This document shows, piece by piece, positions 57,785-61,877 of a DNA stretch of 64,000 bases. Source of the stretch: Pedobacter psychrophilus (GTDB taxonomy: Bacteria; Bacteroidota; Bacteroidia; Sphingobacteriales; Sphingobacteriaceae); assembly GCF_001652725.1 (NCBI RefSeq), contig NZ_LWHJ01000011.1, positions 620,001 to 684,000 on the forward strand. The letters run 5' to 3'. A program made the position numbers and the translations under genes. Positions within the stretch are counted from its first letter, which is position 1. Every line of letters begins with the position of its first letter. Below the pieces are notes generated by a model, which was given only the letters and a program-made list of their open reading frames with translations, was not told where the DNA came from and made no database searches.

Positions 57785-59113
57785 TTGCAGCCAAAAGAAA
57801 ACCCCCGCCCGCCCAAAAAATCCTTGGTATTTAAATTAATATTAATATTTGGTTTAGCAGCTTTACTAGTTGCCGAAGGCTATTTTGGTTTTCGTTTACA
57901 CGAATTATCAAAACAGCAGGAAGAAATAAAAACTGATTATACAAATGTCAATAATATCACCTTTGGTTTATTCTCTGCAGAACAATGGCGTGATAAAATA
58001 TCAGGTATCCTAAATAAACAGGTACGTAATTTTTCATTAAATAAATATGAAAAAAGGCAACTTCAAACTGAGGTGGAAGAGGTTATTTATGCGCTAATAG
58101 ATCAGGCAGAAGCTTTAATAGAAAAAAAACCACAAACTTTTAAAGGCAAAATAAGAAAACTAGCGATAAAAAAGTTTGTTGATATGGATACCATAAAATC
58201 TCAGGTACCATCTTTTGCAAGAGCTATGATTGCAAAAATCAATAATTCTGCTAATAAAAATCAGATTAGCACTTTGGCGATGAGCAAGTTTAATGAAGTG
58301 GAGAAAACTAACGCTTATATTGATAGCACATTAACCGCAAATGATTCTACTACCAATATTTTATATAATAAATATCAGGTAAAAACTTCAGATCAATTAA
58401 ACGTTAAACTTTTAAAATCTCTGGAAAACATAAAAGCCAGCACTTATTATTACTGTTTTGCAATGCTTGCTTGTATTATTGTGGTTTTAATGCTTTGGTG
58501 GCTAATCCGCAAGCGTACCGAACTACATGCAATCATGTTTATCATGTCATTGTTATTTGCGTTTATTTTACTAGATGTTGGCTTAACCGCATCCATGATA
58601 GAAGTTGATGCCCGCATAGGTTCTTTAGATTTTGTGCTCTTAGGCGAACATGTAGTTTTTGAGAATCAGGTACTATTTTTCCAGAGCAAAAGTATATTGG
58701 ATGTGGTAGAGATTTTAATAAAACAACCAGAAATAGATTCGATTTTGGTGGGTGTGTTAATATTAGTTTTCAGTATTTTATTCCCTATTACAAAATTAAG
58801 TTCTACAGGTATTCATTTATTGGGTAAAAAGAGCATTGCAGAAAGCAAATTTGTGAGATACTTTGCATTTCAATCTGGTAAATGGAGCATGGCCGATGTA
58901 ATAGTGATTGCAATTTTAATGGTTTATATAGGCCTTAACGGTTTGTTAGAAAGTCAGTTGGCCAACCTCAACATAAAAAGTGATTTTTTAACCATTATTA
59001 CCACTAACAATACAGCACTACAACCGGGTTATATTATTTTCATCAGTTTTGTTTTATACGGATTAATGCTTTCAACCATTTTGAAATATATCACCCCGCA
59101 TGATGCACATTAA
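57785..59113 (+). CDS. PqiA-like membrane protein with large N-terminal periplasmic domain (copy 1)
   Basis: 442 residues from a TTG start. A first membrane helix (LVFKLILIFGLAALLVAEGYFGF) is followed by about 180 helical charged residues (FGLFSAEQWRDKISGIL and on) and then by four or five membrane helices. The segment FPITKLSS to RYFAFQSGKWSMADVIVIAILMVYIGLNG resembles half of a paraquat-inducible protein A domain (the WSM-DV motif). PqiA works with MCE-type PqiB in lipid transport between membranes; no MCE gene is adjacent. A close paralogue follows after 47 bases. Confidence 0.72.
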   Translation: MQPKENPRPPKKSLVFKLILIFGLAALLVAEGYFGFRLHELSKQQEEIKTDYTNVNNITFGLFSAEQWRDKISGILNKQVRNFSLNKYEKRQLQTEVEEVIYALIDQAEALIEKKPQTFKGKIRKLAIKKFVDMDTIKSQVPSFARAMIAKINNSANKNQISTLAMSKFNEVEKTNAYIDSTLTANDSTTNILYNKYQVKTSDQLNVKLLKSLENIKASTYYYCFAMLACIIVVLMLWWLIRKRTELHAIMFIMSLLFAFILLDVGLTASMIEVDARIGSLDFVLLGEHVVFENQVLFFQSKSILDVVEILIKQPEIDSILVGVLILVFSILFPITKLSSTGIHLLGKKSIAESKFVRYFAFQSGKWSMADVIVIAILMVYIGLNGLLESQLANLNIKSDFLTIITTNNTALQPGYIIFISFVLYGLMLSTILKYITPHDAH

Positions 59114-59160: not shown

Positions 59161-60480
59161 TTGAGTACCGAACAAAAATCAACATCTACCAAAAAATTTG
59201 GCTTAGCAAGTATATTTCTCATTTTAGGGTTAAGTGTACTGCTATTTGGTGAAGCCTATTTTGGTTATCATTTACATACGCTATCTGCAAAGCAAGAAAG
59301 TATTAAAGAAGATTACAGCTTGTCCAATAATATTACATTCGGTATTTTTTCTATCGACCAATGGCGAGATAAAATTGCGACGGTTGTAAATGGGCAAGTA
59401 ACGGATTTTAAGATTACTTCTGCTCAAAAGAAATCTTTACAAACACAGGTAGAAACCGCACTTCACGGTATGATAACCAAAACAGTAAATGAGATTAATA
59501 AGCCGCAAAAATCCCTCGGTAGTAAACTAAAGAAATTTGCATTTAATAAATTTGTAGAACCTAAAGAGTTGCAGGCCTTAGTTCCGGGTTTTGCTAAAAC
59601 CATAATAGATAAGGTAAGTAGCCCGGCTAGTGTTAAGCGATTAAAAAATATCGCAACAAGCAGAATAGATAAACTAGAAAGTGAAACTTATGATAGCACT
59701 GGAGTAGTTACTGAAACGGTAACTAAAGCATTATTTAAAAAATATAATGTAACCGATGCCGCCGCCTATGATAAAGAAATAAACAGACAATTAACTGATA
59801 TAAGGGCTGTAACCTATAATTATGCCTATGGAATGTTAGGCTGCGTTTTACTCGCATTTGCGCTATGGTTTTTTATGCGGAAACAAGTTCATCTGCAAAC
59901 TATACTTTTTGTGATGTCATTATTATTTGCAATTGTGCTACTTACTGTTGGTCTTACAGCTTCTATTATAGAGGTTGAAGCCAGATTGGCATCATTAAGC
60001 TTCGCAATTATGGGACAAAAAATAGAATTTGTAAATCAAGTACTATTTTTCCAGAGCAAAAGTTTGTGGGGCGTCATTACTGCATTAATCCAACAATCTA
60101 AGCCAGATGCAATAGTTGTAGGAGTGCTATTGTTAGTTTTTGTAGTGATATTTCCGCTTTTAAGGATGATTGCCAGAGGAATACATTTGGTAGCTCCTCC
60201 GGCTTTTGCAGAAAATAAAGTGATAAGATACTTAGCGTTTCAATCCGGACATTGGGATATGGCCGATGTAATGGTAGTAGGAATTATCATGACTTATATT
60301 GGCTTAAATGGTATTCTGAAAAGTCAGCTTACTGGTTTAAATTTTAATAATGAATATTTGGTTACCCATACCGTAAACCAAACTTCCCTACAGCCAGGCT
60401 ATTTTATATTTGTAGGTTATGTTGTGGTAGCTTACACTCTATCTTATATTCTAAAACGAATTTCTCCTCATACGCATTGA
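59161..60480 (+). CDS. PqiA-like membrane protein with large N-terminal periplasmic domain (copy 2)
   Basis: 439 residues from a TTG start, paralogue of the preceding gene over its full length: shared FGxFSxxQWRDKI after the first helix, NQVLFFQSKS between later helices, RYLAFQSGHWDMADVMVVGIIMTYIGLNG with the PqiA-like motif (W-D-M in place of W-S-M) and a final LQPGYFIFVGY helix. The pair arose by tandem duplication and has diverged well. Inner-membrane location is likely; function is unknown beyond the PqiA resemblance. It is the last gene before the accessory right end. Confidence 0.72.
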   Translation: MSTEQKSTSTKKFGLASIFLILGLSVLLFGEAYFGYHLHTLSAKQESIKEDYSLSNNITFGIFSIDQWRDKIATVVNGQVTDFKITSAQKKSLQTQVETALHGMITKTVNEINKPQKSLGSKLKKFAFNKFVEPKELQALVPGFAKTIIDKVSSPASVKRLKNIATSRIDKLESETYDSTGVVTETVTKALFKKYNVTDAAAYDKEINRQLTDIRAVTYNYAYGMLGCVLLAFALWFFMRKQVHLQTILFVMSLLFAIVLLTVGLTASIIEVEARLASLSFAIMGQKIEFVNQVLFFQSKSLWGVITALIQQSKPDAIVVGVLLLVFVVIFPLLRMIARGIHLVAPPAFAENKVIRYLAFQSGHWDMADVMVVGIIMTYIGLNGILKSQLTGLNFNNEYLVTHTVNQTSLQPGYFIFVGYVVVAYTLSYILKRISPHTH

Positions 60481-60541: not shown

Positions 60542-60624
60542 ATTTGGGCGTTTTTACACGCTTTTCACTATATCTTTTTTTCTGAAAGAAGAAAAAAAGG
60601 ATGCCGCTTCAATCGTTAACGCAA
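60542..60624 (-). repeat. Dispersed hairpin repeat, copy 2
   Basis: Inverse of copy 1 at 13819-13902: ATTTGGGCGTTTTTACACGC on the left and GTTAACGCAA on the right. The hairpin is CTTTTTTTCT, a short loop, AGAAAAAAAG, with a few extra bases in the loop. It sits just upstream of the REP array. Confidence 0.8.
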
Positions 60625-60832
60625 GAGAACCCTTTTTAGCTTAAATTTTTGCTATTTCAGCGGTCACTTAAATCTTATTAGGTTTAGATAATAATCTCGA
60701 AAAAATATTTTAATTTAAATACCCTCGCTGGTTTAAGTGTTCGCTTTTCAGCGGTCACTTAAATCTTATTAGAAATCTCAGGACTGTGTCCGGGTTTAGA
60801 TAATAATCTCTAAAAATGTTTTAATTTTAAAG

Positions 60833-60895
60833 ATGGCAACACGGTACAGATTTGGAGACAATGAAAACGCACATTTTGTAACATTTGCAGTTGTA
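60833..60895 (+). pseudogene. Truncated 5' copy of the RAYT gene (21 codons)
   Basis: Encodes the same first 21 residues as the full gene at 61146 (MATRYRFGDNENAHFVTFAV and one more) with four base differences, all silent (codons 4, 12, 17 and 20). It is cut by the next REP unit at 60901. Confidence 0.85.
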
Positions 60896-60985
60896 CCTCT
60901 CTGGTTTAAGTGTTCGCTTTTCAGCGGTCACTTAAATCTATTTAGGTTTAGAGAATAAAATTTTAAAATGTTTTAATTTTAAGAG

Positions 60986-61033
60986 ATGGCAACACGTTAT
61001 AGATTTGGAGACAATGAAAATGCACATTTTGTA
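60986..61033 (+). pseudogene. Truncated 5' copy of the RAYT gene (16 codons)
   Basis: Encodes the first 16 residues of the full gene with one silent difference (codon 5), then is cut by the next REP unit at 61041. Its unit lacks the CTCAGGAC element found in the other two. Confidence 0.85.
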
Positions 61034-61145
61034 ATCCACTCTGGTTTAAGTGTTCGCTTTTCAGCGGTCACTTAAATCTATTTAGAAATCTCAGGACTCT
61101 GTCCGGTTAAAGGCAATAATCTCGAAAAATGTTTTAATTTTAAAT

Positions 61146-61700
61146 ATGGCAACACGTTACAGATTTGGAGACAATGAAAATGCACATTTTGTAACGTTTG
61201 CAGTAGTACACTGGATTGATGTTTTTAGTAGGGAAGATTATAAAGAAATTTTAGTAGAAAGTTTAAGGTTTTGTATCAAAGAAAAAGGGTTAAATGTATA
61301 TGCTTGGGTAATTATGACAAACCATGTCAATTTAATTATAGCATGTAAAGAAGGGTTTAAGCAAGCCGATGTTTTAAGAGACCTGAAAAAATTTACGGCT
61401 AAAACAATTATTAAAGCTATTGAAGAAAATAGTAAAGAGAGTAGAAAGGATTGGATGATTTGGATGTTTAAACGGGCAGGAGCAAAAAACTCAAACAATA
61501 AAGTTTATCAATTTTGGCAACAAGATAACCATCCTATAGAATTATCAACCTTAGAAATGATACAACAAAAATTAGATTATATCCATCAAAATCCTACAAG
61601 AGCCGGAATAGTATTTGAACCCGAATATTATAAGTACAGTAGTGCTTCTGATTATCATGAAGACAAAGAAGGTTTATTGCCAATAGAGAAGATGTTTTAA
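61146..61700 (+). CDS. REP-associated tyrosine transposase (RAYT, Y1_Tnp/IS200-like) with altered HUH motif
   Basis: 184 residues, standard size for TnpA_REP proteins. Opening RYRFGDNENAHFVTFAVVHWIDVFSREDYKEILVESLRFC and AWVIMTNHVNLI place it in the Y1 family. The closing YIHQNPTRAGIVFEPEYYKYSSASDY carries the Tyr-bearing helix. The family motif is H-U-H; here it reads His-Val-Asn (CAT GTC AAT), so the second metal-binding His is lost by a single C-to-A change. RAYT proteins cut and move REP sequences as single-stranded DNA. With Asn the enzyme may be weak or inactive. It is directly behind the REP array listed above. Confidence 0.92.
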   Translation: MATRYRFGDNENAHFVTFAVVHWIDVFSREDYKEILVESLRFCIKEKGLNVYAWVIMTNHVNLIIACKEGFKQADVLRDLKKFTAKTIIKAIEENSKESRKDWMIWMFKRAGAKNSNNKVYQFWQQDNHPIELSTLEMIQQKLDYIHQNPTRAGIVFEPEYYKYSSASDYHEDKEGLLPIEKMF

Positions 61701-61704
61701 ATCT

Positions 61705-61733
61705 TACCGGACAGAGTCCTGAGTTTTCAAAAA
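61705..61733 (+). repeat. Right-end repeat of the RAYT element, copy 1
   Basis: A 29-base sequence (TACCGGACAGAGTCCTGAG, then TTTTCAAAAA) 4 bases after the transposase stop. It contains the inverse of CTCAGGACTCTGTCCGG at 61090-61106. It recurs exactly at 61805-61833. Confidence 0.85.
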
Positions 61734-61804
61734 GCATTTAAGTGATCCTATTGGAACACTTAAACGAGATAGGGGTCACTTAAATCTTATTAGGTTGTAA
61801 AACA

Positions 61805-61833
61805 TACCGGACAGAGTCCTGAGTTTTCAAAAA
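61805..61833 (+). repeat. Right-end repeat of the RAYT element, copy 2
   Basis: Exact copy of 61705-61733. Both copies are associated with AAACGAGATAGGG (61762-61774 and 61831-61843). Confidence 0.85.
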
Positions 61834-61877
61834 CGAGATAGGGTTCGTTTTTTCGTTAAAGTTGAAGACATTCTTTT

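What the first reader, a model, noticed from the sequence alone, without database searches (positions are those of the whole stretch)
60655..61833. RAYT transposase behind a tandem array of REPs that each carry the 5' end of its own gene
Seen: three full REP units, each followed by a leader and the first codons of the same transposase gene. Two units are cut after 21 and 16 codons by the next REP, and only the third is full length. All five base differences between the short copies and the full gene are silent, so the fragments derive from genes that were under protein-level selection. The downstream side has only end repeats and no missing gene interiors, so simple nested insertion does not explain it. 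Known: RAYT proteins act on REP hairpins. Inference: the left end moves or is duplicated on its own, adding units next to an existing REP.
Basis: partly seen in the sequence, partly recalled or inferred. Interest (0 to 1): 0.72.

Follow-up and report, generated by a model that had tools for sequence, protein, structure and literature searches.

The report
Tandem REP units carrying transposase-gene stubs
Next to a small REP-associated transposase gene in a Pedobacter-like bacterium, the gene's own front end (hairpin repeat plus first codons) has been copied head-to-tail in place; the same kind of scar recurs at many related transposase genes, at either end, and it records how the hairpin edge acts as a duplication point.

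Summary
Upstream of an intact RAYT ORF (61146-61700, NF047646) lie a decayed unit (no codons) and two REP+leader+gene-start units cut after 21 and 16 codons. All five differences from the full gene are silent.

The pattern is not unique. Four of seven RAYT-type genes in this genome, and several RAYT loci elsewhere in Bacteroidota with different REP hairpins, carry left-end units with 21-228 nt of gene 5' end. Eleven of 201 RAYTs show the mirror image at the right end with 3' gene stubs.

In each, the next REP starts at or within a few nucleotides of its outer edge, while the inner cut is variable and close to the gene end. In this genome the stub units occur only inside the arrays. In the window, U2 is the closest relative of its neighbour U3.

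This favours in-situ tandem duplication anchored on the REP outer edge over a left end that moves on its own. A RAYT nick at that edge is the likely, unproven trigger. Tandem REP/REPIN clusters beside RAYTs are already published; captured transposase stubs and both-ended geometry are the new variant.

The window's RAYT is probably dead: HUH has become HVN, unique among 201.

The parts
60630..60721 (+). U0: oldest left-end unit; decayed hairpin A (right arm CACTTAAATC intact), no hairpin B, leader, stops at the A of the lost ATG
   Evidence: hairpin no longer stable: z -0.92
60722..60895 (+). U1: REP (hairpin A 60732-60763, hairpin B ~60780-60793), leader, RAYT codons 1-21 (60833-60895)
   Evidence: hairpin A z -5.5
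60896..61035 (+). U2: REP (hairpin A 60905-60936, B deleted), leader, RAYT codons 1-16 (60986-61033)
   Evidence: hairpin A z -6.1
61036..61145 (+). U3: REP (hairpin A 61045-61076, B ~61094-61107) and leader of the full-length gene
61146..61700 (+). RAYT (TnpA-REP), 184 aa; NF047646 91.1 bits (cut-off 80); Y145 in YIHQNP; HUH motif altered to HVN (H60, N62)
61706..61774 (-). Right-end inverted REP: hairpin B' (61707-61723), hairpin A' (61737-61764), outer edge CCCCTATCTCG on the minus strand
61775..61849 (.). Collapsed REPIN-like remnant: right arm of hairpin A (direct) plus inverted hairpin B' with A' cleanly missing, ending in a repeat of CGAGATAGGG
   Evidence: families D4, D5, D6

Best explanation
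The array is a stack of in-situ tandem duplications at the left end of a RAYT element (a gene between inverted REPs). Each event joined a variable point X, a few to ~230 nt inside the gene or in the leader, to the outer edge of the element's own REP. That adds one head-to-tail unit [REP - leader - gene start up to X] while keeping the full gene downstream. The likely trigger is the RAYT protein: TnpA-REP enzymes nick beside the REP hairpin and become covalently joined to the 5' end they make (PMC8266576). The cut edge is then joined to a nearby 3' end, or a fork runs off at the nick and restarts a short distance back. Shown here: geometry, recurrence, both-endedness, array-only location of stubs in this genome, and that U2 is nearest its neighbour U3. 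Inferred: that RAYT makes the cut, and the repair route.
For: Same architecture at other RAYTs with different REPs: L101 (21 nt of gene), L128 (60), L132 (99), L140 (31), L159 (59), a second RAYT copy in L152 (24), L278 (172, unit 99.6% identical), and in this genome C31 (94), C30 (228), C11:185k (39). In each, the next REP begins at or within a few nt of its outer edge while X varies. Mirror-image right-end arrays: 11/201 RAYTs, e.g. five successive right-end units with 3' gene stubs in L231. Left arrays in 10/201 RAYTs by script vs 2/723 other ORFs of the same loci; Fisher P 5e-7 with two hand-found cases added. No stub units elsewhere in the genome. In the window U2 and U3 share four derived bases absent from U1 and G005. 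TnpA-REP cleaves at C|T beside the REP and strand-transfers a 3'-OH to the 5'-P-Tyr end (PMC8266576).
Against: No experiment. X shows no strict sequence rule: many junctions have a C shared by gene and REP edge, but others do not, with 0-3 nt microhomology, so passive template switching at a hairpin is not excluded. The REP edge cannot always be placed to the base. IS200 elements also gave 1 left and 1 right locus in 28, so the pattern is not shown to be RAYT-specific. The window's own RAYT lacks the second HUH histidine, so recent events would need an earlier active form or another RAYT. The array may be as old as the split from G005 (U1-G005 11/158, U1-U3 13/158 differences).
Confidence: 0.62

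Rival explanations
1. Nested insertion followed by collapse: a second copy of the element inserted into the first gene near its start, then homologous recombination between the two gene 3' parts removed the second right end and the duplicated interior, leaving stub + full gene.
For: Gives exactly one stub plus one full gene with no leftover interior; RAYT elements can look mobile here (L152 has two 100% identical 744-nt copies; in G008 the RAYT lies between two pieces that read as one TPR-like reading frame).
Against: Left-end sequences of three RAYTs in this genome are single-copy outside their own arrays, so a 91-99% identical donor landing in a 550-bp target repeatedly is unlikely. Cuts cluster close to the gene end (left at most 228 nt, right at most 154 nt of ~550) instead of spreading over the gene. 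Leader-only units (L111, L112) need no gene target.
Confidence: 0.13
2. Purely passive replication slippage or template switching at the REP palindrome, independent of RAYT.
For: REP hairpins are duplication-junction hotspots in E. coli (22 of 90 novel junctions; PMC3161906), with microhomology; junctions here show 0-3 nt microhomology; hairpin B in U0/U2 and hairpin A' in the right remnant are cleanly deleted, as expected of palindromes.
Against: Breaks sit at or just outside the foot of the hairpin, at the edge that bounds REP and REPIN copies, rather than scattered through the stem.
Confidence: 0.17
3. The left end (REP + gene start) is an autonomous mobile unit that inserts preferentially beside existing REPs.
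For: IS200/IS605-type chemistry could make a small circle from the left cut to a cryptic inner site and reinsert it at the flank of a REP; all units abut a REP.
Against: No stub unit found away from the arrays in this genome for three RAYTs, although solo REPs and a REPIN are dispersed; inner ends share no cleavage motif.
Confidence: 0.08

Closest known systems
Tandem REPIN/REP clusters beside RAYTs in Pseudomonas fluorescens SBW25 (Bertels and Rainey 2011, PMC3116915)
   Same: Tandem near-identical units including flanking sequence; three clusters lie next to the three RAYTs; a second mechanism for cluster formation was proposed.
   Different: There the units are REPINs with their flanking sequence and no captured transposase ends are mentioned in the passages read. 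Here the flank is the transposase gene's own 5' (or 3') end, units are single-REP, each anchored at the REP outer edge with a different inner cut.
GTAG REP clusters and TIRtrons (BMC Genomics 2013, PMC3733652)
   Same: [quoted passage not shown] RAYTs in some species are flanked by long non-GTAG inverted repeats.
   Different: No captured RAYT gene ends are described in the text read; the REP here has no GTAG foot.
TnpA-Y1 subclass 2.6 / RAYT group 5 of Bacteroidetes (PMC6006769)
   Same: Length ~180 aa, WQ, YIHQNP, atypical flanking hairpins with copies elsewhere in the genome.
   Different: Window copy has NHVN instead of NH[LIV]H; tandem units with gene stubs are not reported in the passages read.
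One-ended rolling-circle products of HUH transposases (IS91, Helitrons; own knowledge, lead only)
   Same: One end fixed at the nick site, the other end variable.
   Different: Those products move to new sites; here the units stay in place.

Membership tests
REP-associated tyrosine transposase (TnpA-Y1 subclass 2.6 / RAYT group 5) | Matches curated RAYT model NF047646 | tested here: met
   91.1 bits vs cut-off 80
REP-associated tyrosine transposase (TnpA-Y1 subclass 2.6 / RAYT group 5) | Catalytic Tyr in YIH[QN]NP and WQ motif | tested here: met
   Y145, W124-Q125; Y in 201/201, W in 199/201 aligned genes
REP-associated tyrosine transposase (TnpA-Y1 subclass 2.6 / RAYT group 5) | HUH metal motif NH[LIV]H | tested here: not met
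   Window copy is NHVN; 200 of 201 aligned RAYT genes keep the second His and the exception is the window gene itself. Member by descent, probably inactive
REP-associated tyrosine transposase (TnpA-Y1 subclass 2.6 / RAYT group 5) | Gene flanked by inverted hairpins, copies of which occur elsewhere in the genome | tested here: met
   four other palindrome copies on contigs C27 and C28
Canonical GTAG REP | 5' GT[AG]G guide tetranucleotide at the hairpin foot | tested here: not met
   Foot reads CCCTCTCTGG or variants; atypical, as reported for subclass 2.6
REPIN | Two inverted REPs with a short spacer, found away from the transposase | tested here: met
   C28:218354-218381 and 218521-218553 face each other; low copy number
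IS200/IS605-type insertion sequence | Whole element transposes as a unit, with empty sites | tested here: inconclusive
   L152 identical copies; G008 copy between parts of one reading frame, but no intact homologue found; no empty site for the window
Ordered tandem REP/REPIN clusters | Head-to-tail units including flanking sequence, beside a RAYT | tested here: met

The most novel reading that the evidence does not exclude
RAYT nicking at the REP outer edge directly creates fixed-edge, variable-inner-end tandem duplications (a one-ended, in-place reaction). Arrays at RAYT ends would then be natural records of where the enzyme cuts and how REP clusters and REPINs are born, including internally deleted RAYTs that keep both gene ends.
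Probability: 0.35. Interest if true: 0.7.

Novelty: new variant of a known kind. Interest (0 to 1): 0.45.

Why it matters
How REPs and REPINs multiply and cluster is an open question. Coding sequence trapped inside the repeat unit shows which way each duplication ran, where it started (the REP outer edge) and where it stopped. Such tagged arrays at many RAYTs make the role of the transposase in REP cluster formation directly testable, and they point to internally deleted RAYTs as a likely source of REPINs.

Tried and rejected
Simple nested insertion: rejected, no missing gene interiors. Mobile left end: no dispersed stub units. Recent origin: not supported; U1 is as close to G005's left end as to U3, though only 4 informative sites. 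Left-specific process: rejected, right-end arrays equally common. A conserved inner cleavage motif (C|A or C|T): not supported across junctions. Silent differences as proof of selection on stubs: weak after polarising the changes. Empty site for the window locus: only G005 has the upstream gene at the same place and it also carries the RAYT, with one left REP; the other upstream-flank matches are a dispersed repeat identified as Flavo-1 RNA. Intact homologue of the reading frame around the G008 RAYT: none in the genus. Papers on RAYT gene-fragment arrays: none found. The Rfam GAIT match is below its cut-off and taken as chance.

Full report
What is there. The window lies on contig C11 of a 4.0-Mb genome whose nearest named relatives are Pseudopedobacter/Pedobacter. 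At 61146-61700 is a 184-aa ORF matching the curated model for REP-associated tyrosine transposases (NF047646, 91.1 bits, cut-off 80) and Pfam Y1_Tnp. It sits between inverted REPs: a long hairpin A (TTTAAGTG...CACTTAAA; folded as DNA z about -5 to -6) and a short hairpin B (GGACTCTGTCC). Upstream are three extra left-end units: U0 (60630-60721, decayed, no codons), U1 (60722-60895, 21 codons) and U2 (60896-61035, 16 codons), then U3 with the full gene.

Downstream, the right-end REP (to ~61774) is followed by a collapsed REPIN-like remnant (61775-61849) in which half of hairpin A and all of hairpin A' are missing. No gene interior is found.

Orthologue. In G005 (Pseudopedobacter MAG LF-bin-240; L047) the same gene lies downstream of the same upstream gene (80% DNA identity), with a single left REP and no array. 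Its leader and two silent codons match U1 rather than U3. Over 158 shared columns U1 differs from G005 at 11 sites and from U3 at 13, so the first duplication could be as old as that split; four informative sites cannot settle the order. U2 and U3 share four derived bases absent from U1 and G005, so U2 arose from its neighbour U3. Long-term selection on the gene is purifying (window vs G008 dN/dS 0.09). Yet the window copy has HVN in place of HUH (all 200 other RAYT genes aligned keep the second His), and the G005 copy has an in-frame stop. Both look recently inactivated.

Recurrence. Eighty relatives from a scan of bacterial and archaeal genomes, plus loci from genus- and family-wide searches, gave 201 distinct RAYT genes. 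Ten have, just upstream, a copy of leader plus at least 12 nt of gene start by an automatic rule, against 2 of 723 other ORFs in the same loci. L132 and the second RAYT in L152 were added by hand, and the Fisher P of 5e-7 includes them. The REP hairpins of these loci mostly differ in sequence, so I read them as largely independent events. In the window's own genome four of seven RAYT-type genes carry such stubs: window, C11:185k (39 nt), C31 (94 nt) and C30 (228 nt). L278 has a 172-nt stub in a unit 99.6% identical to the element. L231's left units are composites that also carry right-end sequence, so they are not counted as pure left-end stubs.

Both ends. Eleven of 201 RAYTs have the mirror image: right-end REP units carrying 3' gene stubs (8 of 723 control ORFs, P 6e-4). 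L231 has five in a row. In G008 (Pedobacter cryophilus) the right REP is duplicated with the cut inside hairpin B. The common rule is therefore not 'the left end moves' but 'a REP outer edge is joined to a variable point just inside the element'.

Junctions. In each array the second REP starts at or within a few nucleotides of the foot of hairpin A, while the inner cut varies. Examples: window U1 GTTGTAC|CTCTCTGGTTTAAG; L152 AAAATC|CCCGTCTGTCC; L273 (right) TTTTGTCCC|TGCTGGTCGGG; L278 TTAATGA|TTTTTGCTGTTCG. Many share a C at the join; several do not. Microhomology is 0-3 nt. Left cuts lie within the first 228 nt and right cuts within the last 154 nt of a ~550-nt gene.

Mechanism. The C31 and C30 left ends and the window left end find no stub-bearing copies outside their arrays; dispersed matches are REP or REPIN only. 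With single-copy RAYTs, repeated self-insertion is unlikely, and nested insertion plus homologous collapse would not confine cuts to the gene ends. In-situ duplication fits best. TnpA-REP proteins cut at C|T beside the REP, stay linked to the 5' end, and transfer it to a 3' end that must finish in C (PMC8266576). That chemistry, or run-off of a fork at such a nick, would pin one end at the REP edge and leave the other variable. Passive template switching at the palindrome remains possible: REPs are junction hotspots in starving E. coli (PMC3161906). A small IS200 control set had 1 left and 1 right locus of 28, so the pattern may belong to hairpin-ended Y1 elements in general.

Known or new. 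Tandem REPIN clusters with flanking sequence beside RAYTs, and REP clusters with variable flanking DNA, are published (PMC3116915, PMC3733652). The protein belongs by descent to subclass 2.6 / RAYT group 5, whose flanking hairpins were called atypical (PMC6006769). What I did not find described is the capture of the transposase gene's own ends in the units, its recurrence at both ends, and the fixed outer edge with variable inner cut. I rate it a new variant of a known kind.

Noticed in passing
window 61146-61700 (residue 62): HUH motif is HVN; none of the other 200 RAYT genes aligned lacks the second His. The G005 orthologue instead has an in-frame TAA. Two orthologues apparently inactivated by different mutations.
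   Followed up: yes
window 60550-60627 (-): Flavo-1 RNA (RF01705, 57.9 bits, cut-off 42) just upstream of the array; the same ~90-bp stretch recurs many times in this and related genomes (28 matches listed for the own genome), so Flavo-1 behaves as a dispersed repeat.
   Followed up: partly
L213, L223, L224, L140, L231: Internally deleted RAYT elements keep REP + gene start + gene end + REP (e.g. L224: 132 nt of 5' and 198 nt of 3' gene; L213: 33 and 48 nt). They look like REPINs newly made from a RAYT by internal deletion.
   Followed up: partly
L237 (G000:C11:185k): Besides a left stub of 39 nt, a second piece of the gene start (about codons 2-17, with the stub's variants) lies immediately beyond the right-end REP. 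Not explained by simple duplication.
   Followed up: no
L238 (G000:C31:213500-217500): The RAYT with its 94-nt stub unit is flanked by direct repeats of at least 135 bp of non-RAYT sequence, 96% identical, suggesting a larger duplication around it.
   Followed up: no
L048 (G008:C9:695500-701000): RAYT element lies between two segments that read as one TPR-like lipoprotein frame, bounded by CCCC..GGGG REP edges; no intact homologue found to prove an empty site.
   Followed up: partly
window 60630-60721, 60896-61035, 61775-61849: Hairpin B is missing cleanly from U0 and U2, and hairpin A' from the right remnant, as if single palindromes are deleted precisely.
   Followed up: no
window 57785-59113 and 59161-60480: Two adjacent, similar genes (442 and 439 aa; the second matches Pfam PqiA), apparently a tandem gene duplication.
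   Followed up: no
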